From contig NZ_CP139957.1 of NCBI RefSeq assembly GCF_034343125.1, forward strand, positions 2,724,001-2,788,000: DNA of 64,000 nt, read 5' to 3'. Origin of the DNA: Caldicellulosiruptor danielii. Its GTDB lineage: Bacteria; Bacillota; Thermoanaerobacteria; Caldicellulosiruptorales; Caldicellulosiruptoraceae. The position numbers and the translations under genes are program-made. The first letter of the stretch is position 1, and every line of letters begins with the position of its first letter. This document shows, one piece after another, positions 6,241 to 23,129 of the stretch. The notes beneath the pieces are model-generated. The model did no database searches, had not been told where the DNA came from, and was given only the letters and a program-made list of their open reading frames with translations.

Positions 6241-6336
6241 GTTTGTAGCCTTCCCTTTGGGGATTGAAAGCATTGATGCTGGCCTCCCGGCTGCGCTCGG
6301 AACGAAGTTTGTAGCCTACCCTTTGGGGATTGAAAC
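6241..6336 (+). CRISPR. Two-repeat mini-array (one spacer)
   Basis: Repeats lie at 6241-6270 (ending GAAAG instead of GAAAC) and 6307-6336 (CCTACCC variant), with one 36-base GC-rich spacer between them. The same spacer and the same terminal repeat variant close the arrays ending at 20452 and 38404. This is therefore the leader-distal end unit of an array with every other spacer lost. Confidence 0.85.
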
Positions 6337-6458: not shown

Positions 6459-7388
6459 ATGCGCGATAGCCTTCCACCACAAGAACATGATTCAACTTTC
6501 AAGTTTTTGTTTGAACACCCTAAGGACATTCTTTTCCTTATCAAGGATGTGATAGGCTACAGCTGGGCAAAAGACATCCAAGAAGATTCAATTGAGCTTG
6601 CAGACAAAGAGTTTGTCGGTGAAGATTTTCTACAAAGAAGAGCAGATGTTGTAGCAAAAGCAAAACTAAAAGACAGGGAAGTGTACTTTTACATCATTAT
6701 TGAGAACCAATCAACTGTTGCAAAAGACATGCCAGAAAGACTTTTGCGATACATGATACTACTGTGGGCAAAGAAGATAAGAGAAGGGGTAGAAAAACTT
6801 CCAGCAATTATTCCCATAGTGACATACAATGGACTTGAAAAAGAATGGGATGTTGAACAGGAGATAATCAGTGAATTTGATATTTTCAAGAATGATATAT
6901 TCAGGTATGCACTTGTAAACATCTCAAAGTTAGATGCAAAAGCTTTATTGTGCGAAGAAGAAGATGTGCTAAGCCCTGTTGTATTTTACTTAGAGCAGGT
7001 AAGGGATGATACAGAAGAGCTTGCAAGAAGGTTAAAAGAAGTAGAACCGCAGCTGAGAAAATTTAGCAGCACCAACATAGAAAGATTTTTGATATGGGCA
7101 GGCAATGTAATTAGACCAAGGCTTACAAAAGAAGATAAAGAAGAGTTTGACAAGCTGATAGAGAGAGTAAAACAGGGGGGAGTGAGTAAGATGGGTGAGT
7201 TTGTATCAAATGTTTCAAGACTTCTTGATGAAGCACAAATGAGAAAATTCAACGAAGGCAAAATTGAAGGGAAAGAAGAGGTAGCAAGGAAACTGATAAA
7301 GAGAGGATTTAGCGATGAAGATATTGCAGAGCTTACAGAATTGGATATAGAAAGAATAAAAAAGCTGAGGAAAGAGTTGATTAATTAA
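6459..7388 (+). CDS. rpn: Rpn/YhgA-family PD-(D/E)XK nuclease, copy 1
   Basis: The 309-residue protein begins with an HDSTFKFLF segment typical of the Rpn (recombination-promoting nuclease, putative transposase) family. The nuclease core is visible as RRAD (D63) followed by IIIENQS (E82, Q84), the D...ExQ form of the PD-(D/E)XK motif. The tail carries GKIEGKEE and an AELTELD...LRKEL helix pair typical of this family. Family members promote RecA-independent recombination in E. coli. The start ATG has an AAGGAG ribosome site. The gene sits between a CRISPR end unit and the leader of the 44-repeat array; copies at 20575 and 38527 are nearly identical. Confidence 0.9.
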   Translation: MRDSLPPQEHDSTFKFLFEHPKDILFLIKDVIGYSWAKDIQEDSIELADKEFVGEDFLQRRADVVAKAKLKDREVYFYIIIENQSTVAKDMPERLLRYMILLWAKKIREGVEKLPAIIPIVTYNGLEKEWDVEQEIISEFDIFKNDIFRYALVNISKLDAKALLCEEEDVLSPVVFYLEQVRDDTEELARRLKEVEPQLRKFSSTNIERFLIWAGNVIRPRLTKEDKEEFDKLIERVKQGGVSKMGEFVSNVSRLLDEAQMRKFNEGKIEGKEEVARKLIKRGFSDEDIAELTELDIERIKKLRKELIN

Positions 7389-7782: not shown

Positions 7783-8030
7783 ATTTGACCAAAAGTCATA
7801 TCTGTCGACTTGCGGTAGCAAAATTTTGAGGTTTGATTTGTATACGATTTCATATTTGCGGTGAGTGGGATTGCATGGTTTTCTGGCAGCAGCTGGATAG
7901 ACGGAAGGGTTTAAGAGGCTTTAATCCTTTGATTTTTCTGGACTCTTTTGAGTTTTCCACAGATGTTTTAAAATAAAAACATTGACATGGGTGTATAAAG
8001 TTGATATAATAAAACTAAGCTTTCGGACGT
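7783..8030 (+). promoter_or_regulatory. CRISPR leader, type L1 (copy a)
   Basis: About 250 bases run straight into the first repeat. Conserved blocks shared with the other L1 copies are TTTGACCAAAAGTCATA, then CTGTCGACT, then AAAATTTTGAGGTTTGATTT, and a GGATAGACGGAA block. The promoter is TTGACA (7982-7987), 17 bases, TATAAT (8005-8010), placing transcription start about 14 bases before the first repeat at 8031. Confidence 0.8.
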
Positions 8031-10936
8031 GTTTGTAGCCTTCCCTTTGGGGATTGAAACAATTCTTAAGAGCAAGCAAAAATACGAGAGTAAAAGAGGT
8101 TTGTAGCCTTCCCTTTGGGGATTGAAACGTGATTATTGGGAAATCAAACATAATCCGATGGAGCGTTTGTAGCCTTCCCTTTGGGGATTGAAACGCGTAT
8201 CCGATGTCGACATAGCTATTGATTCCGACTTGTTTGTAGCCTTCCCTTTGGGGATTGAAACACAATTTGCTCTTTTCTAAACCCTTTGAAATATCGCAAA
8301 GTTTGTAGCCTTCCCTTTGGGGATTGAAACCAGCAGTCTTTTTGATAACTCAATAACGTTTATATCTTCGTTTGTAGCCTTCCCTTTGGGGATTGAAACC
8401 TTACAGTGAAATTCTTAAAATATCTAAGTTTTTCAGTTTGTAGCCTTCCCTTTGGGGATTGAAACGATCAAAAATTTAGAAAATATATCCTTTTTCGACC
8501 AAGTTTGTAGCCTTCCCTTTGGGGATTGAAACAATCCCATACTTCCCTTTCTCTGTATTCAAGTTTTGGTTTGTAGCCTTCCCTTTGGGGATTGAAACAA
8601 AAGAACCGCTTTGCTATAACTTGCACCTGCTTCAAGTTTGTAGCCTTCCCTTTGGGGATTGAAACCCCTTATTGTCTGTATCGGTATATTAACCTTTCTG
8701 AGTTTGTAGCCTTCCCTTTGGGGATTGAAACTTCTTGTTGTGCGAAAAGTAAAGATAAGAAACGAACGTTTGTAGCCTTCCCTTTGGGGATTGAAACAAT
8801 AATAAATTATCTTATTTATATAAAAACTAATATGTTTGTAGCCTTCCCTTTGGGGATTGAAACTTGTGCATTGTGCTAAACCTGGTTAGTAAAAATTTTG
8901 TGAAAAAGTTTGTAGCCTTCCCTTTGGGGATTGAAACCCTGTTTTTTAACTGCGGCACTGCTTTTAAGATAAATTGTTTGTAGCCTTCCCTTTGGGGATT
9001 GAAACCTCTGAGATGTCAAATGGGTTTATATAGTTTTCACTGTGTTTGTAGCCTTCCCTTTGGGGATTGAAACTGCTGCAGGATTAGGTGTTGTTGCAAT
9101 TGCAACTGGGTTTGTAGCCTTCCCTTTGGGGATTGAAACGATATTGAGAAGGACTCATGTCAACAGCTGAACAAAGTTTGTAGCCTTCCCTTTGGGGATT
9201 GAAACTCTTTTAAAAACTCTAAAGCCTTTTTGTCGCCTAACAAGTTTGTAGCCTTCCCTTTGGGGATTGAAACTTTCTCTTGCTGCTGAGTATCATTATC
9301 CGCTGTTTGTTGTTTGTAGCCTTCCCTTTGGGGATTGAAACTGATTAAACCTTCATTATGTAGGTCGATTAACCATTGTTTGTAGCCTTCCCTTTGGGGA
9401 TTGAAACCCTACCTTCCCTATTGTCTTTTTTATGCCTTCCACGGTTTGTAGCCTTCCCTTTGGGGATTGAAACATTGTTCTTTAATACCTGCTTTTTATG
9501 GCAGGTCTTGTTTGTAGCCTTCCCTTTGGGGATTGAAACGTAACTATTACGCTTAACACGTCTTTAGCCATACCCGTTTGTAGCCTTCCCTTTGGGGATT
9601 GAAACCTTTGCGAACTAACTATAATGTCGTAACCAAATTTAGTTTGTAGCCTTCCCTTTGGGGATTGAAACAAAAAAATTCTGATAACCTCTGCTACACT
9701 TTTAATAGTTTGTAGCCTTCCCTTTGGGGATTGAAACCTTTAACCGCGAAATAAGTCTTACCAGCCCCACGCTTGTTTGTAGCCTTCCCTTTGGGGATTG
9801 AAACTATATAAGCTTTATCTGTCAACACCTTGCACTTCAACTGTTTGTAGCCTTCCCTTTGGGGATTGAAACTTGCTTCTTTATATTTTTTGTATCTTTC
9901 TAAGTCTTTTGTTTGTAGCCTTCCCTTTGGGGATTGAAACCTCATTTGCTTTGTAAAATCATAATTCAACCTTATAGGTTTGTAGCCTTCCCTTTGGGGA
10001 TTGAAACGTTGTCAATCTCGGCGACATAGTGATTCCACGAGGAAGTTTGTAGCCTTCCCTTTGGGGATTGAAACGTGAAAACGAGATGATTTGCATAACA
10101 GGCTGGCGTGAGTTTGTAGCCTTCCCTTTGGGGATTGAAACGGTGGCTTGGGCTCTGCATCAAACAACTTAACAATGTGTTTGTAGCCTTCCCTTTGGGG
10201 ATTGAAACCCCATGGAGTCAATAGTTTCTATAATCCTGAGAGATGTTTGTAGCCTTCCCTTTGGGGATTGAAACATTACACGCTCATCCAATGCTTTGTT
10301 AAACATATCAGCGTTTGTAGCCTTCCCTTTGGGGATTGAAACCAAGATGGTTTGCTTGATAAAGACAAGCTTAAAGACGTTTGTAGCCTTCCCTTTGGGG
10401 ATTGAAACAAAAAGCCGGCTATTGCCGGCTTTTTGCTTAATGTGTTTGTAGCCTTCCCTTTGGGGATTGAAACAGATATTCCTAAAGCTGAGTATATAAC
10501 TGAAGAGTCGTTTGTAGCCTTCCCTTTGGGGATTGAAACCCCCTGCAAACTGTAATTTCTTCGTCTACAACCTCTGTTTGTAGCCTTCCCTTTGGGGATT
10601 GAAACTTGTTATAGAACCTAACCTCTCTTATTTGTTCACCCAAGTTTGTAGCCTTCCCTTTGGGGATTGAAACCTGTTCTATCTGTCCATGGTGCGTTCT
10701 CTTTTGCATGTTTGTAGCCTTCCCTTTGGGGATTGAAACTTGTAATGCTTAAGTGTGTGGAAATTTTCCACTCAAGTTTGTAGCCTTCCCTTTGGGGATT
10801 GAAACATAAGTTGCAGATAGACATTTGCAAAATTGTAAGCGTTTGTAGCCTTCCCTTTGGGGATTGAAACCTTGTCCTGCCCTTCCTCAACCAGATATGT
10901 GCCTGGTTTTTAGCCTCCCCCTTTGGGGATTGAAAT
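8031..10936 (+). CRISPR. CRISPR array 1, about 44 repeats
   Basis: I count 43 repeats of 30 bases (GTTTGTAGCC...GATTGAAAC), identical by eye, starting at 8031, 8099, 8165 and so on to 10841, with 35-39 base spacers. A 44th, degenerate repeat lies at 10906-10936 (GTTTTTAGCC...GATTGAAAT). The ATTGAAAC end gives the usual 8-base crRNA 5' handle, so transcription is on the plus strand from the L1 leader. The type I-B cas operon begins 146 bases after the last repeat. One spacer (10409-10443) forms a perfect terminator-like hairpin. Confidence 0.97.
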
Positions 10937-11015
10937 TGCTTCTCTTCTTGTAATTTGCCAATCGCCTTTGCTACCCTCTCCTTAAACTTCGCATAAAATT
11001 TGACCTTTCTTAAAG

Positions 11016-11068
11016 CTTTCAAACAGATAAAATTAAAATTGTAAAGTTTAAAATTGGCTGTTTGAAAG
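11016..11068 (+). promoter_or_regulatory. Perfect 11-bp inverted repeat before cas4
   Basis: CTTTCAAACAG (11016-11026) and CTGTTTGAAAG (11058-11068) are exact complements separated by 31 AT-rich bases. The right arm overlaps the GAAAGAAGG ribosome site of cas4 (start 11082). It could be a dimeric repressor operator or an RNA hairpin hiding the ribosome site. A -35-like TTGACC lies at 11000-11005, but I see no well-spaced -10. Confidence 0.5.
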
Positions 11069-11081
11069 AAGGCAGAAGCAA

Positions 11082-11585
11082 GTGGAAAACTTTTTTGATG
11101 TCAAAGGTTCGATTGTACAGGCATACATCGTTTGCAAAAGACAGGCATGGCTTTTGTCACGAAACATAGGACCATCACCAGATAACCCCTTTTTGGAGAT
11201 AGGCAAGTTAATATCGCAGGAGTATTACAAGCATGACAAAAAAGAGGTATACTTTGACGGTGTGGTCTTAGACCTAATCCGCCACGAAAATGAGGTTTTG
11301 CTGGTTGGGGAAATTAAAAAGTCTTCAAGGTCAAAAAACGCTGCAATGACACAGCTCAAATTTTACCTCTACAAGCTTTTTAAAAACAACATAAATGCCC
11401 GTGGAAAGCTTTTAATACCAGAAGAGAAGAAGACTTTTGATGTTGTGCTTTCGTTTGACGACATCAGAGATATTGAAAGCCTCATTGAAGAGATTTTGGA
11501 ATTTCTTTCAAGATCTTCACCACCTGAGCCACAAAAAATAAAAGCTTGTTCAAAATGCTCATATAAGGAGTTTTGCTGGGCATGA
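11082..11585 (+). CDS. cas4: Cas4 exonuclease/adaptation protein (type I-B)
   Basis: The protein has 167 residues. The RecB-like nuclease core shows VGEIKKSS (E and K of the D-ExK motif) followed by QLKFYLY. Four cysteines for the Fe-S cluster are at C18 (CKRQAWL), C156, C159 and C165 (CSKCSYKEFC). Cas4 trims and orients new spacers with Cas1-Cas2. The start is GTG 11082 behind GAAAGAAGG. The stop overlaps the cas1 start as ATGA, so the two are translationally coupled. It is the first gene of the plus-strand cas operon. Confidence 0.95.
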   Translation: MENFFDVKGSIVQAYIVCKRQAWLLSRNIGPSPDNPFLEIGKLISQEYYKHDKKEVYFDGVVLDLIRHENEVLLVGEIKKSSRSKNAAMTQLKFYLYKLFKNNINARGKLLIPEEKKTFDVVLSFDDIRDIESLIEEILEFLSRSSPPEPQKIKACSKCSYKEFCWA

Positions 11586-12577
11586 AAAAACCTGTTTACA
11601 TCTTTTCAGATGGCGTTTTGAAAAGAAAAAATAATACCCTGTTTTTTGAAAGTGAAGGTGTGCAGAAGTTCATACCTGTTGAAAATACATCTGAGATTTA
11701 CATCTTCGGTGAGGTTGATTTGAACAAAAGGTTCTTGGAATTTTTGACCCAAAGTGAAATAATACTGCATTTTTTCAATAGGTACGGCTACTACGTTGGA
11801 AGCTTTTACCCCCGTGAGTATCTGAACTCTGGGTATATGATATTAAAACAAGCTGAACACTATCTTGATTTGCAAAAAAGACTTACTTTAGCAAAAGCAT
11901 TTGTAAAAGGTGCTTACAAAAACATGAAACAGGTTTTAAAATACTACCAAAGCCGTGGAATTGACTCTCTTGACCGCTACATCCAGCAAATGGACAATCA
12001 ATTTGAAAGCATCTCTGGCATTGACAGCATCGCAACTCTAATGGCAATTGAAGGAAATATCAGACAAACATACTATAGTAGCTTTGACCTTATCATAGAT
12101 GATGATAATTTCAAGTTTGAAAAGAGAACAAAACGACCACCCAGAAATGCTATCAATACTCTCATCAGCTTTGGAAACTCTATGATGTATACCATTGTCC
12201 TTTCAGAAATATACAGAACTCATCTTGACCCGCGGATTGGATACTTGCACTCAACTAACTTCAGAAGATTTACACTCAACTTGGATGTTGCTGAGATATT
12301 CAAACCTATAATCATCGACAGGCTTATCTTTTCGATAATATCAAAGAACATGCTAAAGCCTGAACATTTTGAAGAGGATTTCGAAGGAATGCTTTTAAAG
12401 GATGAGGCAAAAAAGATGTTTATAAATGAACTTGAACAAAGGCTGTCAACCACAATAACTGTTAAAAATATTGGCAATCATGTTTCATACAGGCAGCTTA
12501 TAAGAATTGAACTTTACAAGATTGAAAAGCATCTTATGGGCGAAAAAGAATATGACCCTTATGTAACTCAATGGTAA
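11582..12577 (+). CDS. cas1: Cas1 spacer-acquisition endonuclease
   Basis: Taking the ATG that overlaps the cas4 stop gives 331 residues, normal for Cas1; a TTG 9 bases upstream is possible but less likely. Expected metal-site residues are present: E157 in AIEGNIRQTYY, H223 in YLHSTNFRRF, and D235/E238 in NLDVAEIFKP. Cas1 is the integrase of the Cas1-Cas2 complex that inserts spacers at the leader end. It is the only cas1 in the window, so it presumably serves all arrays, including those beside the type III operon. Confidence 0.96.
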   Translation: MKKPVYIFSDGVLKRKNNTLFFESEGVQKFIPVENTSEIYIFGEVDLNKRFLEFLTQSEIILHFFNRYGYYVGSFYPREYLNSGYMILKQAEHYLDLQKRLTLAKAFVKGAYKNMKQVLKYYQSRGIDSLDRYIQQMDNQFESISGIDSIATLMAIEGNIRQTYYSSFDLIIDDDNFKFEKRTKRPPRNAINTLISFGNSMMYTIVLSEIYRTHLDPRIGYLHSTNFRRFTLNLDVAEIFKPIIIDRLIFSIISKNMLKPEHFEEDFEGMLLKDEAKKMFINELEQRLSTTITVKNIGNHVSYRQLIRIELYKIEKHLMGEKEYDPYVTQW

Positions 12578-12593
12578 CTGAGGTGAAGAGGAT

Positions 12594-12857
12594 TTGTACA
12601 CAATTCTTGTGTACGATGTCAACGAAAAGCGTGTTGCAAAAGCATTAAAGGTGTGCCGAAAATATCTCAACTGGGTGCAAAACTCTGTGTTTGAAGGCGA
12701 AATTTCAGAGGCAAAACTCAAAAAACTAAAGCTTGAACTGAGTCAAAAGCTGAATCTTGAAGAAGACTCTGTGATAATCTACAACTTTCAAACTAAGTTC
12801 TATTCAAGCCGCGAAATTCTTGGCGTAGAGAAAAACAATTTAGATAGGTTTATCTAA
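12594..12857 (+). CDS. cas2: Cas2
   Basis: The 87 residues begin MYTILVYDVNEKRVAKAL, the standard Cas2 ferredoxin-fold start with the conserved Asp after VY. An NWVQNSVFEGE segment follows, and a DSVIIYNF strand lies near the C-terminus. The start is TTG 12594, placed by GGTGAAGAGG just upstream, since no ATG or GTG precedes the conserved first strand. It forms the scaffold dimer of the Cas1-Cas2 integration complex. Confidence 0.95.
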   Translation: MYTILVYDVNEKRVAKALKVCRKYLNWVQNSVFEGEISEAKLKKLKLELSQKLNLEEDSVIIYNFQTKFYSSREILGVEKNNLDRFI

Positions 12858-12935
12858 GAAATCAAGGTATATGGTTGAATTTCTAATTTGATTGTGATAA
12901 GCTAAATTTTAGTAAAATCAAAGAGGTGCCAAAAA

Positions 12936-14861
12936 ATGATTGAAGCTGTTGCTGAGCTGGGAAAATTCCTTGTTGAGGGAAAGTCAAAGACATCATCCAA
13001 AACTTGTGATGGTGACTTTTCAAACAACATTTCATCTTTTTTAACACCTGTGGAAAGCGACAAGGTGCTTTTAATTTGCCTTGAACAAAAACAGTCGGGG
13101 TTTGAATACTGTGGTGTTGAACCTCAAAATCCCCTTGAATCAAGAGCCCAGTTTTATCTCTTTAGTCAGGGGGCAAAGGGTGGTGGCACAAACTTTTCAC
13201 CTGCGTGCATCTTGACCAAGCCCAAAACAAAAAGAGATATGACACAAGATGAGGTAAAACAAGCCATAAGAGAAAATGTTGAAAATGTGTTTGAGAAAAA
13301 AGTGGAAAACTGGTTTTCAAACAAAGCACTGCCCCTTGCAAAAAAGCTTTCAAAGCAGGGTGATATATCAGATAAAGATGCACTTTTTATTCAAAGTATA
13401 TCTCAGGCTGTTGAGAATAACAGAGAAAAGATAATCAACCATGTCTCTGACCACATCTTTTCAGAATTTGAAAAGCTAAAAAGCAGTGTTCTTTTGACAT
13501 TTTTGATTGACGGCAAATACATTGGTGAATACGAAATATTCAAAAGGTTTTTACTGGAACTTATAAAAGAAAAGGCTGAAAAGTCAAGCTCACAAGACAA
13601 GACTTGCTGCATATGCAAACAAAAAAGAGAAAATGTATCTGGCACAGTCAATGTTTTCAAATTCTATACAATCGACAAGCCCGGGTTTATAAAAGGTGGA
13701 TTTTCGTCTGAGAATGCATGGAAGAACTTCCCTGTATGCTCAAGCTGTCAGATACACCTCAGCGAAGGCAGAAAATTTTTGGAACAAAATCTTCAGTTTA
13801 AGTTTTACAACTTTAAATACCTTCTCATACCCAAGCTTTTATTTAGCACAAGTGCTGCATATTCAGAGGTGCTTAATATTTTGCAAAATACTCAAAAGGA
13901 GATTCGCCTTGGTGAAAAAACCTTAGATAAGATTACCGATGATGAAAACGAAATCTTAGAGACCTTGAGCACATTCAACGATTCAATCTCTGTTACATTC
14001 CTGTTCATGGTCCCACAAATGGGCGCTGAGAGAATTGTCTTGATGATTGAAGATGTTTTCCCATCACACCTAAAAAATATATTTGATGCAAAAAGGCACA
14101 CAGAAAAGAAATTTCGCAAACTCTTTGACAACCCTGACATTGTCTTTACCTTTCAGCAGATTAAACACTTTTTCTCAAAGAGCAACAGGCTCAGAAAAAA
14201 GTCTGACCTTGACAGCTATTTTTTAGAGATAACTGAGAGCATCTTCAAGAAAAAACCCATAGACTTTCAATTTTTACTAACTCATTTTTGCCGAAGACTG
14301 CAAGACAGCATTGCAAACAACGACTTTTTTGACTTTTACAATTCCTGCAGCTATGCAATGCAGATTTTGGAGTTTTTAAACAGCCTTAAAATTTTAAAGC
14401 TAAAAGGAGATGAGTGTGGTATGTCTGTTGAAACGCCGTTTGATGAAATTCTAAATGAGTTCCCTGTTGCGTCAAAAAACCCTGCTGTAAAAGGAATTAT
14501 CCTTGTTGGTGCGCTTTGTGACATGCTTTTGAGAATTCAGTCGGCAGGTCTTAAAAAAGCTCCCGGAAGAATGCCGCCGTTTGCCAAAAATCTGAAAGGA
14601 CTTAGGTTAAAACAAGCTGATATCATCTCGCTTCTGCCAAAGATTGAAAACAAACTTATGGAATACTCAGCATTTGGCAAGGCAAAGAAACTTGTGGCTG
14701 CTACAGCTTCAGAGCTTTTGCTAAAAGCGCCGGCTGACTGGAAATTATCTTCCGATGAGGTAAGTTTCTACTTTGCCTGCGGTATGAATCTTGGTCAAAA
14801 AATCAGGGACCTTGCAAAGAAACTGACAAATGACCTTGATGAGACTGAAGCTGAAGAGTAA
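12936..14861 (+). CDS. cas8b: Cas8b large subunit of type I-B Cascade (TM1802-like)
   Basis: The 641 residues match the TM1802/Csh1 layout: an AELGKFLVEG start, a region with QSGFEYCGVE, a zinc-finger-like part with CCIC near residue 223 and CSSC near 268, and a helical C-terminal half (GRMPPFAKNLKG). Cas8b is the large Cascade subunit that recognises the PAM and recruits Cas3. It follows cas2 after 78 bases with an AGAGGTG ribosome site and precedes cas7 by 49 bases. Cas8b sequences diverge strongly, so the call relies on length, the zinc motif and operon position. Confidence 0.88.
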   Translation: MIEAVAELGKFLVEGKSKTSSKTCDGDFSNNISSFLTPVESDKVLLICLEQKQSGFEYCGVEPQNPLESRAQFYLFSQGAKGGGTNFSPACILTKPKTKRDMTQDEVKQAIRENVENVFEKKVENWFSNKALPLAKKLSKQGDISDKDALFIQSISQAVENNREKIINHVSDHIFSEFEKLKSSVLLTFLIDGKYIGEYEIFKRFLLELIKEKAEKSSSQDKTCCICKQKRENVSGTVNVFKFYTIDKPGFIKGGFSSENAWKNFPVCSSCQIHLSEGRKFLEQNLQFKFYNFKYLLIPKLLFSTSAAYSEVLNILQNTQKEIRLGEKTLDKITDDENEILETLSTFNDSISVTFLFMVPQMGAERIVLMIEDVFPSHLKNIFDAKRHTEKKFRKLFDNPDIVFTFQQIKHFFSKSNRLRKKSDLDSYFLEITESIFKKKPIDFQFLLTHFCRRLQDSIANNDFFDFYNSCSYAMQILEFLNSLKILKLKGDECGMSVETPFDEILNEFPVASKNPAVKGIILVGALCDMLLRIQSAGLKKAPGRMPPFAKNLKGLRLKQADIISLLPKIENKLMEYSAFGKAKKLVAATASELLLKAPADWKLSSDEVSFYFACGMNLGQKIRDLAKKLTNDLDETEAEE

Positions 14862-14910
14862 AATGCCTTGCGTTTTAAAAAATTCAAACAATCAAAAGGG
14901 GGAATTTTTG

Positions 14911-15894
14911 ATGGAAAATTTAAACAATAACATTATCAAAAACAGATCTGAGATTTTGTTCTTGTACGATGTGACAGATGCAAACCCAAATGGTGACCCA
15001 CTTGATGAGAACAAGCCACGAATTGACCCTGAGACAGATACATGCATAGTGACAGATGTGCGCTTAAAAAGAACATGCAGAGATTACTGGGCAGAGTATA
15101 AAAACTTGCCGGTGTTCATCTTAAGAGAAATTACCGATGATGGGAAGCTTATGACAAAGTCTGAAAAATTCTCAAAGTACAATCTCAACAAAGACAAGCT
15201 GAAAGACTTCATTGACATAAGACTTTTCGGTGGCACAACCACTTTAAAGAGCAAGGACGAAAAGAGAAAAACCAAGACAGATGAGGATTCGACAGAAGAG
15301 ACAGGTGCAATCACCTTTACAGGTCCTGTTCAGTTCAAGTTCGGAAGGTCTTTGCATAAAGTTGAGTACATGCTTGTCAAAGGCACAACAGTTATGCCCT
15401 CTGGTGAGGGCAAAGACCAAGGAACATTTACAGAATGCTATATTCTACCATACGCACTGATTGCTTTTTATGGAGTTGTAAACGAAAACGCAGCTTTATG
15501 CCAAGATCTTCCTGTAACAGAAGAGGATGTTCAGCTTCTTTTAGAGGCTCTTTGGTGCGGAACAAAAAATTTGATTTCACGCTCAAAGTTTGGTCAGATG
15601 CCAAGGCTTCTTGTAAGGGTTGAATATAATCAGAGTGGTTTTTACATTGGTGAACTTGACAAGCTTGTGAAACTTATATCCCAAAAGTCAGATTTTGCTA
15701 TACGCTCACCTGAAGATTTCCAGCTTGATATAACAAGGCTTGTTGAAAAGATTTCAAAGTATCAGGATAAGATTCAAAAGGTAGAAATTGCTTTCGATGA
15801 CTCTATAAGCTTTATACACGGTGGAAATTTTGTTGGTTTACAAGATGCTCTTTCTTTCTTGGGTGATAGGGTTAAACTCCTTCAGTTTGAGTGA
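14911..15894 (+). CDS. cas7: Cas7 backbone subunit of type I-B Cascade (Csh2)
   Basis: With the ATG at 14911 behind AAAGGGGGAA the protein has 327 residues. An upstream in-frame start at 14830 would overlap cas8b and lacks support. The sequence opens with FLYDVTDANPNGDPLDEN, the hallmark of Csh2/Cas7b, and continues with VTDVRLKRTCRDYW and a GAITFTGPVQFKFGRS strand pair. Several copies coat the crRNA spacer in Cascade. The gene is central in the cas operon. Confidence 0.95.
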   Translation: MENLNNNIIKNRSEILFLYDVTDANPNGDPLDENKPRIDPETDTCIVTDVRLKRTCRDYWAEYKNLPVFILREITDDGKLMTKSEKFSKYNLNKDKLKDFIDIRLFGGTTTLKSKDEKRKTKTDEDSTEETGAITFTGPVQFKFGRSLHKVEYMLVKGTTVMPSGEGKDQGTFTECYILPYALIAFYGVVNENAALCQDLPVTEEDVQLLLEALWCGTKNLISRSKFGQMPRLLVRVEYNQSGFYIGELDKLVKLISQKSDFAIRSPEDFQLDITRLVEKISKYQDKIQKVEIAFDDSISFIHGGNFVGLQDALSFLGDRVKLLQFE

Positions 15895-15916
15895 TTAAAT
15901 TTCAAGGTGATGTAAT

Positions 15917-16645
15917 ATGAAAGTAGTTGTATTTGATATTAAAGCTGACTTTGGTTTTTTTGGAAAGTTCTACTCAACATCCTCGCCAATAACATACCCC
16001 TTCCCGCCATTCCCAACCATTCAGGGAATGGTGGGAGCTATCTTGGGACTTGACAAAAAAGAGTATCTTGAGGTTTTAGAGTATGGTAAGTTTCGTGCAG
16101 GGATTAGAATTTTAAATCCCGTGAAAAAAATCAGAATGGGAATAAACCATATCGATACAAAAGAAGGAAGATGGCAGCCTATAAAAACCAAAAATCGCCA
16201 GCCACGAACACAGATGAGGTTTGAGCTTTTAAAAGACCCTTGCTTTAGAATATATGCAACACATGTATCAGAAGACATTTTTTTAAAACTTGTAGACTTT
16301 TTGCAACAGCACAAAAGTTATTTCACCCTTTCAATGGGTCTTTCTGAATTTCTTGCTGATTTTGAATTTGTTGGTGTATTTGAAGCTTTTGAAAAGCACA
16401 TGCCTGATGATTATGTAAGCCTTTGTACACCCATTCCTGTAGAATACTTATCAGAAATGGATGCACCACTTAAGATTGAAGAAGGAAAAAGTTACTATAA
16501 AGAGAGAATGCCACTTTACATGAAAAGTACAAGAGAAGTTGTGAAGTATGAAGATTTTATCTTTGAACCAACCGGAAAAGATATTTTAGCAAGACCATCA
16601 AGTTATGTGGAGGTTCAAAATGGAGAGAACATTGTACTTTTCTGA
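15917..16645 (+). CDS. cas5: Cas5 subunit of type I-B Cascade
   Basis: The 242 residues begin with a Cas5 RAMP strand (VVVFDIKADFGFF), then SSPITYPFPPFPTIQGMVGAILG, the typical Cas5 start-helix motif. The C-terminus has a PSSYVEV strand. Cas5 caps the crRNA 5' handle in Cascade. Translation starts at ATG 15917 behind AAGGTGAT. The 3' end overlaps cas3 by 26 bases, indicating coupled translation. Confidence 0.93.
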   Translation: MKVVVFDIKADFGFFGKFYSTSSPITYPFPPFPTIQGMVGAILGLDKKEYLEVLEYGKFRAGIRILNPVKKIRMGINHIDTKEGRWQPIKTKNRQPRTQMRFELLKDPCFRIYATHVSEDIFLKLVDFLQQHKSYFTLSMGLSEFLADFEFVGVFEAFEKHMPDDYVSLCTPIPVEYLSEMDAPLKIEEGKSYYKERMPLYMKSTREVVKYEDFIFEPTGKDILARPSSYVEVQNGENIVLF

Positions 16646-19082
16646 AAAACCGTCGGGGCTTTTTTCTCACCCCGGCAAAGACGGCGGTATTGAAGGTGCA
16701 AAGCCGTTAGAAGTCCATCTTGTAAACAGTAGCATCTTAGCTGAGACTTTTGCATCAGAGAAAAATTTGCCTCTCTGTTCAACAAAATATCTTACACAGA
16801 TTGCAAAAATCACAGCCTTGCTGCACGACATCGGCAAGGCAACTTCTTTTTTTCAAACTTATCTTTTTGATAAGAAAAAAACAAAAAGCAGACTATCGCG
16901 TCACTCCCTTATCTCTGCTATTTGTGTGTGGGGGACACTGAATAGGCTTGTTGAAGAAAAGAAAATCCAAGAGGATAAAGCTTTTGAAGGCTTTACTGCG
17001 ATTTTAGCGTTTTTTGCTGCTTTAAAACATCATGGTGATTTAGAATCAGTATCAGATATGATATTTCTTAGTGATGACGACATAGAACTTTGCTATGAGC
17101 AGATTGAGAATATTGACAAAGAGAAGTTTAACACTCTTGTTTCTAACATCTCTACTTTTTGTCCTGAAATTGGTTTCTTGACGGCAGATACCTTAAGAGA
17201 ATTTGTAGACCATGCAAAAAACTCAACAAACTCTTTTAAAAAAGCTTTCAGAAAGCTTTTTGATACTGAGATGAAATTCTTTTTCATGTTAAATCTGCTA
17301 TATTCTATACTACTTGATGCAGACAAAACAGAGGCAATTTTTGGCACTTTGGTTGATATTCCTGAACTAAATCTTTCTCACACTGATGTTGACAGCTTTA
17401 GAAAAAGTGTTTTCAAACCTGAAAACTTTGAAAATTCAATAAAAGCTTTGAGAGACAGCGCTTTTGAAGAAGCAATAAATTGTGAGATTGACGAAAATAG
17501 ACGCATCTACACCCTTTGTCTTCCAACAGGACTTGGAAAAACCATTATCTCTTTTGCTTTTGCACTAAAGCTCAGAGAACTTGTTAAGGAGAGATTTGGC
17601 ACCAAGTTTAGAATAATTTACTCACTTCCTTTTTTATCTATCATTGAGCAAAATTATAACGTCATCTCACAGATTTTGAGCTTTTGCGGCTTTGAGATAA
17701 CCTCAGACATCATTTTAAAGCACCATCATTTAAGTGATATTGCCTATAAAACCAAAAACAGTATTAAAAGCAGTCAAGAGGAATTTTTCGACTTAGATGT
17801 TGCAAAACTTCTGATAGAAGGCTGGAATTCAAATATAATCGTTACAACATTTGTCCAGTTTTTGGAGAGTATTCTGACAAATAAAAACTCTAATATGAGA
17901 AAATTCCACAGAATTGCAAATTCAATAATAATTCTTGATGAGGTGCAGGCTATAAACTCAGAGTATTGGTTTTTGTGCAAGAATCTTTTTGAAAAGATGT
18001 GTAATTATCTCAACTGTTATATAATTCTTTCAACCGCTACAATGCCTTTCATTGTTGAAAGAAAAACTGCCATTGAGATTGTAAAGCCAGAGAAGTATTT
18101 TGACAAACTGTGTCGAACAGAGTTGTATTTTGACAATAGTTTTTCAAAGGTAAAACTTGAAGAGCTTGTAGAAAAATTTGAGTTCGAAAAAGGTAAGACT
18201 TACCTCTTTGTTTTGAACACGGTAAAAAGTACAAAAAAATTGTATGAACTCATAACCCAAAGATTTCCTGATTTGCAGGATAAAACTACAATTCTGACAA
18301 CTCATATAATTCCTAAAGAGAGATTGAGAAGAATTGAGCAAATCAAAAATAAGAACTACAAAATTGTTGTATCAACTCAGCTTGTTGAGGCAGGGGTTGA
18401 TGTTGACTTTGACCATGTTATAAGAGACATTGCTCCGCTTGACTCAATCATCCAGGCAGCAGGGAGAGCAAACAGAGAAGGCAAAAAAGAAAAGAGTAAA
18501 GTGACAGTTGTTGAACTTGTATCTGAAAAAGAAAAGCTTTTTGCAACAGAGGTTTACGACAGCACACTAATTGATGCAACCAAAAAGATTTTAAGTCAAT
18601 TTCAAAAGGTTGATGAAAGTAAGTTTGCAGATCTAATCTCTGAGTATTACAAAGAACTTGCAAGACGTGGCGTTATTGAAACAAGCAACGACGATAAGGG
18701 AACATCACAAAAATTTCTTGAGGCAATCTACAAGCTCCTTTACACCTCATCCAACTCTGAAACAGCTGCAATTGGAAGTTTTAAACTTATTGAAGATGAG
18801 CCTTACAAAGTAGATGTGTTTGTTGAGGCAGATGAGGAAGCAAAAATTATCTGGCAGAAATTTGTAGAAATTTGCCAGATTAAAGAACCTTTTGAAGGAA
18901 AAAAGAGGTTTTTGGAAATTCGCAAATGTTTTTACGACTACGTTATCTCTGTGCCAAAGACAGATAACATTCCAGTAAATTTTGAAGACATAATACTCTA
19001 TGTGCCAAACAGCCAGCTAAGTAGTTTTTATGATACAAAAACAGGATTTAAAACAGAGGGAGAAACTCATTTGATTTTCTAA
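16620..19082 (+). CDS. cas3: Cas3 HD nuclease-helicase
   Basis: I chose ATG 16620 because GGAGG sits at 16609-16613, giving 820 residues. The HD nuclease part shows LLHDIGKA (H69-D70). The helicase part shows PTGLGKT (Walker A, about residue 302), ILDEVQ (D440-E441), STATMP and QAAGRANREG (motif VI). Cas3 is recruited by Cascade and degrades target DNA. It is the last gene of the operon; its stop overlaps the stop of the truncated CARF gene on the other strand by 4 bases, suggesting the operon end is a rearrangement junction. No terminator is seen after it. Confidence 0.95.
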   Translation: MERTLYFSEKPSGLFSHPGKDGGIEGAKPLEVHLVNSSILAETFASEKNLPLCSTKYLTQIAKITALLHDIGKATSFFQTYLFDKKKTKSRLSRHSLISAICVWGTLNRLVEEKKIQEDKAFEGFTAILAFFAALKHHGDLESVSDMIFLSDDDIELCYEQIENIDKEKFNTLVSNISTFCPEIGFLTADTLREFVDHAKNSTNSFKKAFRKLFDTEMKFFFMLNLLYSILLDADKTEAIFGTLVDIPELNLSHTDVDSFRKSVFKPENFENSIKALRDSAFEEAINCEIDENRRIYTLCLPTGLGKTIISFAFALKLRELVKERFGTKFRIIYSLPFLSIIEQNYNVISQILSFCGFEITSDIILKHHHLSDIAYKTKNSIKSSQEEFFDLDVAKLLIEGWNSNIIVTTFVQFLESILTNKNSNMRKFHRIANSIIILDEVQAINSEYWFLCKNLFEKMCNYLNCYIILSTATMPFIVERKTAIEIVKPEKYFDKLCRTELYFDNSFSKVKLEELVEKFEFEKGKTYLFVLNTVKSTKKLYELITQRFPDLQDKTTILTTHIIPKERLRRIEQIKNKNYKIVVSTQLVEAGVDVDFDHVIRDIAPLDSIIQAAGRANREGKKEKSKVTVVELVSEKEKLFATEVYDSTLIDATKKILSQFQKVDESKFADLISEYYKELARRGVIETSNDDKGTSQKFLEAIYKLLYTSSNSETAAIGSFKLIEDEPYKVDVFVEADEEAKIIWQKFVEICQIKEPFEGKKRFLEIRKCFYDYVISVPKTDNIPVNFEDIILYVPNSQLSSFYDTKTGFKTEGETHLIF

Positions 19083-20156: not shown

Positions 20157-20452
20157 GTTTGTAGCCTCCCCTTTGGGGATTGAAACTATTGTAGTTTATA
20201 AAGCTCTGCGGGGTTGAAAATAGTTAGTAGCCTTCCCTTTGGGGATTGAAACATCAATTTTGCCGGTTCAACGACTGCGAAATCTACTGTTAGTAGCCTT
20301 CCCTTTGGGGATTGAAACGCGCAAATGAAGTCTTTTAAAAATTCTGAAACCTTCTTGTTAGTAGCCTTCCCTTTGGGGATTGAAAGCATTGATGCTGGCC
20401 TCCCGGCTGCGCTCGGAACGAAGTTTGTAGCCTACCCTTTGGGGATTGAAAC
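20157..20452 (+). CRISPR. CRISPR array 2, five repeats
   Basis: Repeats begin at 20157 (GTTTG, CCTCCCC variant), 20223, 20289, 20357 (all GTTAG; the last ends GAAAG) and 20423 (CCTACCC variant). The last spacer (20387-20422) is the same GC-rich one as at 6271 and 38339. The GTTAG repeats match only the leader-distal part of array 4 (34571-38404), so the two share an ancestral array end. Confidence 0.95.
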
Positions 20453-20574: not shown

Positions 20575-21516
20575 ATGCGCGATAGCCTTCCACCACAAGA
20601 ACATGATTCAACTTTCAAGTTTTTGTTTGAACACCCTAAGGATATTCTTTTCCTTATCAAGGATGTGATTGGCTACAGCTGGGCAAAAGACATCCAAGAA
20701 GATTCAATTGAGCTTGCAGACAAAGAGTTTGTCGGTGAAGATTTTCTACAAAGAAGAGCAGATGTTGTAGCAAAAGCAAAACTAAAAGACAGGGAAGTGT
20801 ACTTTTACATTATCATTGAGAACCAGTCAACTGTTGCAAAAGACATGCCAGAAAGACTTCTGCGATACATGATACTACTGTGGGCAAAGAAGATAAGAGA
20901 AGGGGTAGAAAAACTTCCAGCAATTATTCCCATAGTGACATACAATGGGCTTGAAAAAGAATGGGATGTTGAACAGGAGATAATCAGTGAATTTGATATT
21001 TTCAAGAATGATATATTCAGGTATGCACTTGTAAACATCTCAAAGTTAGATGCAAAAGCTTTCTTGTGTGAAGAAGATGATGTGTTGAGCCCAGTAGTGT
21101 TTTACTTGGAGCAGGTAAGGGATGATACAGAAGAGCTTGCAAGAAGGTTAAAAGAAGTAGAACCGCAGCTGAGAAAATTTAGCAGCACCAACATAGAAAG
21201 ATTTTTGATATGGGCAGGCAATGTAATTAGACCAAGGCTTACAAAGGAAGACAAAGAGGAGTTTGACAAGCTGATAGAGAGAGTAAAACAGGGGGGAGTG
21301 AGTAAGATGGGTGAGTTTGTATCAAATGTTTCAAGACTTCTTGATGAAGTCCAAATGAAAAGATTCAATGAAGGGAAAGTCGAAGGCAAAATTGAAGGGA
21401 AAGAAGAGGTAGCAAGGAAACTGATAAAGAGAGGATTTAGCGATGAAGATATTGCAGAGCTTACAGAATTGGATATAGAAAGAATAAAAAAGCTGAGGAA
21501 AGAGTTGATTAATTAA
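20575..21516 (+). CDS. rpn: Rpn/YhgA-family PD-(D/E)XK nuclease, copy 2
   Basis: The 313 residues are almost identical to copy 1, with the same D63, E82 and Q84 nuclease residues, ribosome site and extended -10 promoter (TGGTATAAT). It differs by one extra four-residue GKVE unit in the tail and a few substitutions (FLCEEDD for LLCEEED). Upstream identity begins in the array-end repeat at 20357; downstream identity ends near the stop codon, unlike copies 1 and 4. It separates array 2 from the leader of array 3. Confidence 0.9.
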   Translation: MRDSLPPQEHDSTFKFLFEHPKDILFLIKDVIGYSWAKDIQEDSIELADKEFVGEDFLQRRADVVAKAKLKDREVYFYIIIENQSTVAKDMPERLLRYMILLWAKKIREGVEKLPAIIPIVTYNGLEKEWDVEQEIISEFDIFKNDIFRYALVNISKLDAKAFLCEEDDVLSPVVFYLEQVRDDTEELARRLKEVEPQLRKFSSTNIERFLIWAGNVIRPRLTKEDKEEFDKLIERVKQGGVSKMGEFVSNVSRLLDEVQMKRFNEGKVEGKIEGKEEVARKLIKRGFSDEDIAELTELDIERIKKLRKELIN

Positions 21517-22104: not shown

Positions 22105-23129
22105 ATTTGTAGCCTGCCCTTTGGGGATTGAAACTTGCTAACGTTGCTACCTCTCTTGTAAGTGTTCTTGATTTGTAGCCTGCCCTTTGGGGATTGAAAC
22201 AGCTGCCCATCCCATGTCACATACCCTGGTGGTTGTTTTGTAGCCTGCCCTTTGGGGATTGAAACAACTTTTTGTCTTTCTGTTATAAAGCGCCAGCAAA
22301 CCTTTGTAGCCTGCCCTTTGGGGATTGAAACTTCAACATGAGCGTTTAGATTTTAGACACCCTATGGGCGATTTGTAGCCTGCCCTTTGGGGATTGAAAC
22401 GGTAGTTGATTTAGAACTAAAAGTATCAAATCCTTCTTTGTAGCCTGCCCTTTGGGGATTGAAACACATCTTGAATTTCTCTCAATTTTGTAATCAACAT
22501 CTTTGTAGCCTGCCCTTTGGGGATTGAAACAAATTATGGCAGCTATACAAACAGCTAATACAACTATATTTGTAGCCTGCCCTTTGGGGATTGAAACATT
22601 TAATTGTAAAGGCTGTAATTGACTTTGAACCAGTTTTGTAGCCTGCCCTTTGGGGATTGAAACTTAGTAGTGTCGTCTTTTCTTTCTTTTTTGATTGTAA
22701 TTTGTAGCCTGCCCTTTGGGGATTGAAACTTCTCTCCACGTGAAAATTCATACATTAATTCACATTATTTGTAGCCTGCCCTTTGGGGATTGAAACATGA
22801 ATGTGCCTATTTCGTCCTCATTTACCTTCCTATTTGTAGCCTGCCCTTTGGGGATTGAAACCCGTTAGAGTGCTTGAAGAACCCGGGAACTCCTTCAAAT
22901 TTGTAGCCTGCCCTTTGGGGATTGAAACGGGTATGTTGCAAGCAGGAAATCTCTGTACTCCCGCCAGATTTGTAGCCTGCCCTTTGGGGATTGAAATTTC
23001 TTTCTTCCGTGCTCAGTATAGAAACAATTTTTTGTTTGTAGCCTGCCCTTTGGGGATTGAAACCTCTCAAGCCTGTCCAACTGCACTGCTGTCCACATTG
23101 GTTTGTAGCCTGCCCTTTGGGGATTGATA
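22105..23129 (+). CRISPR. CRISPR array 3, about 16 repeats, CCTGCCC variant with variable first base
   Basis: Repeats start at 22105, 22171, 22236, 22302 and so on to 23034 and 23101. All read CCTGCCC where array 1 reads CCTTCCC. The first base of the repeat is A, T, C or G in different copies, so the true unit is 29 bases beginning TTTGTAGCC. The last copy (23101-23129) is degenerate (GATTGATAA) and the repeat at about 22968 ends GAAAT. It is read on the plus strand from the L1c leader. Confidence 0.96.

What the first reader, a model, noticed from the sequence alone, without database searches (positions are those of the whole stretch)
10409..10443. A spacer that is a perfect terminator hairpin
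The spacer contains AAAAAGCCGGC-TATT-GCCGGCTTTTT, an ideal rho-independent terminator, with the T run on the transcribed side. It probably derives from a phage or plasmid terminator, and it could stop array transcription, silencing the last eight repeats (10444-10936), including those nearest cas4.
Basis: partly seen in the sequence, partly recalled or inferred. Interest (0 to 1): 0.55.

Follow-up and report, generated by a model that had tools for sequence, protein, structure and literature searches.

The report
CRISPR spacer carrying a terminator hairpin
One memory entry in a heat-loving bacterium's CRISPR immune array is itself a stop signal for transcription, which probably weakens the few old entries behind it; such entries recur in other arrays, so this is a minor curiosity rather than a new system.

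Summary
Spacer 36 (10409-10443) of a 43-spacer array is AAAAAGCCGGC-TATT-GCCGGCTTTTT plus a 9-nt tail. The hairpin is not chance: fold z-score -5.2; terminator score d = 32.5, while none of 49,710 shuffled spacers reached 30. It scores like native gene-end terminators: 15 of the 33 ORF-end hits with d>=10 score as high or higher. Array transcription along + is well supported: a perfect TTGACA-17-TATAAT in the leader, 11 or 12 of 12 matches in 47 of 50 genus arrays. So the U-run is on the transcribed side. The hairpin is nearly symmetric. Most likely it partly attenuates the last 7 spacers and makes its own crRNA a dud. Silencing is untested: the hairpin is only about -6 kcal/mol at 75 C and downstream repeats show no decay. 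The phage/plasmid origin is unproven: no protospacer was found. Terminator-like spacers recur: 9 sense and 8 antisense (d>=10) among 4,971 spacers, about 18-fold above shuffles, with no sign that sense orientation is purged. Ordinary, but a clean natural test of array processivity.

The parts
10409..10443 (+). Spacer 36 of the array, containing the terminator-like hairpin
10409..10434 (+). Near-symmetric hairpin AAAAAGCCGGC-TATT-GCCGGCTTTTT: GC core stem 10414-10419/10424-10429, U-tract 10430-10434; terminator-like on both strands
   Evidence: d 32.5 sense, 37.3 antisense; -17.5 kcal/mol at 37 C, -6.1 at 75 C
7982..8010 (+). Leader promoter TTGACA-17-TATAAT driving the array
   Evidence: 12 of 12; at least 11 of 12 in 47 of 50 genus arrays
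8031..10870 (+). 43 exact repeats GTTTGTAGCCTTCCCTTTGGGGATTGAAAC with 42 spacers
10444..10936 (+). Trailing eight repeats and seven spacers that termination would under-express; the last repeat (about 10906-10936) is degenerate
11082..19082 (+). Co-directional cas operon cas4-cas1-cas2-cas8b(TM1802)-cas7-cas5-cas3; no terminator-like hairpin found between the array end and cas4
   Evidence: no sense terminator with E<=-5 in 10871-11110

Best explanation
The element is an ordinary acquired spacer whose protospacer spanned a small, near-symmetric intrinsic terminator. Transcribed from the leader, the nascent RNA forms a GCCGGC/GCCGGC hairpin followed by UUUUU and releases a fraction of RNA polymerases at about 10434. 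That lowers, but need not abolish, crRNAs from spacers 37-43, and yields a truncated, self-folded and probably useless crRNA from spacer 36 itself. It is tolerated because what lies behind it is old and of low value. Shown: hairpin, U-tract, orientation, leader promoter, terminator score at native level. Inferred: termination in vivo, its efficiency, the effect on crRNAs, and the origin in a mobile element.
For: Hairpin and U-tract; d = 32.5, above every one of 49,710 shuffled spacers, while native ORF ends reach d>=10 in 33 of 596 and ORF middles in 0 of 596. Direction of transcription by promoter conservation and by the degenerate trailing repeat. No sigma-70-like site (>=9 of 12) on + between 10434 and cas4 to restart transcription. 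The hairpin persists when the flanking repeats are included in the fold. Terminator-like spacers exceed shuffles about 18-fold (17 observed at d>=10 against about 0.9 per shuffled set), as expected if real terminators are captured now and then.
Against: No protospacer found, so origin is unproven. U-tract of only 5. Repeats behind it are all intact but the last, so no relaxed selection is visible. Sense terminators are not depleted in other arrays (9 sense, 8 anti), which fits tolerance but also fits read-through. The standard scanner did not list it. The d formula and its weights are recalled from memory.
Confidence: 0.6

Rival explanations
1. The hairpin is present but polymerase reads through it in vivo (short U-tract, high temperature, or a processivity or antitermination factor acting on array transcripts), so the last spacers are expressed normally.
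For: No repeat decay downstream. No purging of sense-oriented terminator spacers: 9 sense, 8 anti at d>=10; exact 95% interval for the sense fraction 0.28-0.77. Array L233 carries two strong sense hits at spacers 38 and 62 of 85 with nearly intact repeats behind both. Hairpin energy only about -6 kcal/mol at 75 C.
Against: Gene-end terminators of the genus have similar predicted energies at 75 C (median -6.05) and presumably work. Only 20 nt separate the -10 box from the first repeat here and in 31 of 47 genus arrays, leaving little room for a boxA-like site in the leader RNA.
Confidence: 0.25
2. The terminator spacer now serves as the array's functional 3' end, insulating the co-directional cas operon from the strong leader promoter.
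For: cas4 starts about 145 bases after the last repeat with no terminator-like hairpin between; the strong leader promoter points at it.
Against: Only 6 of 48 complete genus arrays have a terminator-like hairpin within 300 nt of their end, so its lack is normal. The spacer is unique to this genome among 13 of the family and 37 of the class, so no conserved role.
Confidence: 0.08
3. A palindrome with no terminator origin: a spacer from a coding or other palindromic site that merely resembles a terminator.
For: No protospacer found to show its context.
Against: 0 of 596 ORF middles reach d>=0 and shuffled spacers never reach 30; stem plus flanking A and T tracts is the typical layout of bidirectional terminators.
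Confidence: 0.07

Closest known systems
Intrinsic (Rho-independent) transcription terminators, bidirectional A-tract/T-tract type
   Same: GC-rich stem, 4-nt loop, U-tract, matching A-tract; score in the native range
   Different: Lies inside a CRISPR spacer, not after a gene; activity not measured
Polarity of crRNA abundance along arrays (Pyrobaculum, PMC3396285, passages read; Sulfolobales, PMC10883916, passages read)
   Same: Leader-distal crRNAs are less abundant; premature termination is one proposed cause in both
   Different: There gradual or of unknown cause; here a discrete, predicted stop at one spacer
Cbp1/Cren7 control of long Sulfolobales arrays (PMC10883916, passages) and Nus/boxA antitermination of enterobacterial arrays (Stringer 2020, not held; known here from the statement in PMC10883916 and from recall)
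   Same: Array processivity against stops carried in array DNA
   Different: Archaeal DNA-binding protein, or protection against Rho; neither shown here
RNA secondary structure lowering crRNA yield and activity in Cas12a arrays (PMC6610086, passages)
   Same: A hairpin in the array transcript harms crRNA production or function
   Different: Cas12a repeat misfolding, not termination; other system type

Membership tests
Intrinsic transcription terminator | Stable GC-rich hairpin with short loop | tested here: met
   GCCGGC stem, TATT loop, -12.3 kcal/mol core, -17.5 with A/U pairs
Intrinsic transcription terminator | U-tract directly after the stem on the transcribed strand | tested here: met
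   TTTTT then GCTT; shorter than the best terminators
Intrinsic transcription terminator | Sits downstream of a promoter in the right orientation | tested here: met
   Perfect leader promoter 7982-8010 on +, pattern conserved in 47 of 50 arrays; promoter activity itself not measured
Intrinsic transcription terminator | Releases RNA polymerase in vitro or in vivo | not testable with these tools
   Needs RNA-seq or an in vitro assay
Type I-B CRISPR array spacer | Lies between consensus repeats, length as other spacers | tested here: met
   35 nt between exact repeats at 10379-10408 and 10444-10473
Type I-B CRISPR array spacer | Linked I-B cas genes | tested here: met
   cas4, cas1, cas2, Cas_TM1802 (filed as Cas8b by recall), cas7, cas5, cas3 by Pfam; no cas6 among the nine proteins scanned
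Type I-B CRISPR array spacer | Matches a mobile element (protospacer) | tested here: inconclusive
   No full match in any collection searched; the whole array found none in phages either, so power is low

The most novel reading that the evidence does not exclude
CRISPR arrays of these clostridia are transcribed by a terminator-resistant polymerase (an unknown processivity system acting on repeats or leader), which is why strong sense-oriented terminators can sit in mid-array without being purged and without decay behind them.
Probability: 0.07. Interest if true: 0.75.

Novelty: new member of a known kind. Interest (0 to 1): 0.27.

Why it matters
A spacer that stops transcription would silence all older memories behind it, so acquisition carries a hidden cost that falls with distance from the leader. 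The survey gives a first number in this repeat family: about 0.2% of spacers are sense terminators near native strength (9 of 4,971 at d>=10), with no detectable purge. That makes 'do arrays resist intrinsic terminators?' directly testable by RNA-seq in named strains. Thermoanaerobacter wiegelii Rt8.B1 is a good one: its array (loci L049/L233) has two such spacers.

Tried and rejected
Protospacer searches: own genome and 12 family genomes at up to 3 mismatches, 37 class genomes, viral contigs with 28-, 20- and 23-mers, genome contigs with a 25-mer, phages and plasmids by blastn. Only partial hits, mostly on the palindrome, were found. The best was a 26-of-26 match to a Pseudoalteromonas replicon, taken as convergence because it covers just the palindrome. 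The whole array against phages gave nothing, so the negative has little power.

Self-targeting was rejected: no other copy in the own genome.

A leader-distal position bias of sense terminators was looked for and not established: mean relative position 0.63 sense (n=6), 0.40 anti (n=11), 0.52 all spacers; p = 0.35 against all, 0.16 against anti (E<=-8, complete arrays only). A sense depletion was looked for with two callers; sense/anti 13/22 at E<=-6 (p=0.18), 10/16 at -8, 10/11 at -10; 17/12 at d>=0, 9/8 at d>=10. No significant bias; the looser first caller leans to antisense and the second does not. An earlier, smaller run of the first caller (124 spacers) gave 7 sense and 12 anti at E<=-8 and is contained.

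Antitermination site in the leader: only 20 nt lie between the -10 box and the first repeat, so it was not pursued. Shared spacers of this array with the other arrays held: none found.

Full report
What is there. The window lies in a 2,822,094-base single-contig genome. I take it as a Caldicellulosiruptor by recall of repeat and genome sizes; no call names it. Positions 8031-10870 hold 43 exact copies of GTTTGTAGCCTTCCCTTTGGGGATTGAAAC, followed by one more spacer and a degenerate repeat at about 10906-10936. Spacer 36 (10409-10443) is AAAAAGCCGGC TATT GCCGGCTTTTT GCTTAATGT.

Is it more than chance. The strand folds at -18.2 kcal/mol, z = -5.2, 0 of 200 shuffles as good. With a terminator score combining U-tract and hairpin energy per nucleotide (formula recalled from d'Aubenton Carafa and colleagues, not from a call), the spacer reaches d = 32.5 in the sense and 37.3 in the antisense direction. 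Controls with the same code: 0 of 596 ORF middles reach d>=0; 33 of 596 ORF ends reach d>=10, of which 15 score as high as or higher than this spacer. Of 49,710 shuffled spacers none reached 30 (maximum 25.5). So it is a terminator-like element of middling native strength. Predicted energy falls from -17.5 to -6.1 kcal/mol between 37 and 75 C, close to the median of gene-end terminators at 75 C (-6.05). Compared segment for segment at 37 C with my first caller it is weaker than most of these: -13.9 against quartiles of -18.9 to -15.3. The built-in scanner did not report it, apparently because it absorbs the T run into the stem.

Which strand is transcribed. The leader carries a perfect TTGACA-17-TATAAT at 7982-8010 on +. 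The best promoter in the last 120 nt before the first repeat matches 11 or 12 of 12 positions in 47 of 50 genus arrays, while the antisense side of the trailer never exceeds 10 of 12. Trailing repeats are degenerate in many arrays. The U-run therefore lies on the transcribed side, and eight repeats and seven spacers lie behind it, next to cas4. The genes behind are cas4, cas1, cas2, TM1802-type cas8, cas7, cas5 and cas3, all on +. No sense terminator lies between the array end and cas4 (E<=-5), but that is usual: only 6 of 48 complete genus arrays have one within 300 nt.

Origin. No protospacer was found. The partial hits in phages and plasmids are centred on the palindrome, as expected of convergent terminators; a few run some bases into the tail at 83-90% identity and weak E-values. 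The entire array had no phage match, so this silence says little. The claim of a phage or plasmid terminator remains an inference from how spacers arise.

How unusual is it. I collected arrays sharing the TTGAAAC repeat end. That gave 192 arrays, 5,366 spacers, 4,971 after dropping exact duplicates, spacers under 25 nt and those with N. Not every genome with a match was fetched, so the sample is not even. At d>=10 there are 9 sense and 8 antisense hits, this spacer counting once on each side; at d>=0, 17 and 12; shuffles give about 0.9 per set for both directions together at d>=10. With a first, different caller the counts were 10 sense and 16 antisense at E<=-8. Captured terminators are thus about 18 times more frequent than in shuffles and show no significant strand bias. 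The exact interval for the sense fraction, 0.28-0.77, excludes a sense depletion stronger than about 2.6-fold. Sense hits also occur early, e.g. spacer 3 of 17 in L250.

Does anything behind it decay. Repeats behind the hairpin are as intact as those before it (0 mismatches in 36 before and in 6 after, plus the last exact repeat). In the other eight sense cases no consistent rise is seen. This argues against long-standing total silencing, or shows that decay is too slow to see.

How it most likely works. In the nascent transcript the hairpin forms and some polymerases stop at about 10434. crRNAs 37-43 fall in level. crRNA 36 would be cut short, and its guide is folded on itself, so it should be poor in interference even when read through. 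In a Cas12a array, structure in the transcript lowered crRNA yield and activity (PMC6610086, passages). The near-symmetric hairpin should also stop antisense transcription entering from the cas side. Termination and its consequences are inferred, not shown.

Known background. Decline of crRNA abundance along arrays is described in Pyrobaculum, with stochastic termination among the proposed causes (PMC3396285, passages). Premature termination as a way to favour young spacers is discussed for Sulfolobales (PMC10883916, passages), and polymerase termination at palindromic repeats is assumed in a model of array length (PMC5749868, passages). I found no paper on intrinsic terminators carried by spacers in searches of the held library; I read passages of six papers and only listings of the rest, and most subscription papers are not held, so this is no proof of absence.

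Verdict. Observation confirmed, interpretation partly supported. It is an ordinary spacer with an unusual content, of a kind that recurs at about 0.2% per strand in this repeat family. It would gain interest only if RNA data showed that polymerase ignores it.

Noticed in passing
window 9484-9508: A second, weaker terminator-like hairpin in the same array (ACCTGC...GCAGGT, -10.7 kcal/mol), whose T-rich tail is partly supplied by the next repeat.
   Followed up: partly
window 11016-11068: Imperfect 25-nt inverted repeat with a 3-nt gap, about 13 bases before cas4; possibly an operator or a structured 5' leader of the cas operon.
   Followed up: no
window 6242-6336, 20157-20452, 22302-23063, 33011, 45715: Single or very short runs of the same CRISPR repeat scattered outside the long arrays.
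   Followed up: no
window 6459-7388 and 20575-21516: Two YhgA-like Transposase_31/PD-(D/E)XK genes bracket the array and cas operon.
   Followed up: no
genome G000 at 2731720, 2763810 and 2715031: Three array leaders in this genome are 98-100% identical over 280-343 bases, which suggests recent duplication or homogenisation of leaders.
   Followed up: no
L233 (G016, same array as L049, Thermoanaerobacter wiegelii Rt8.B1): An 85-spacer array with two strong sense-oriented terminator-like spacers, numbers 38 and 62: a good named strain for an RNA test.
   Followed up: partly
L250 (G010), spacer 3 of 17: A strong sense terminator-like spacer (-18.0 kcal/mol) near the leader of a genus relative; it would silence nearly the whole array if active.
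   Followed up: partly
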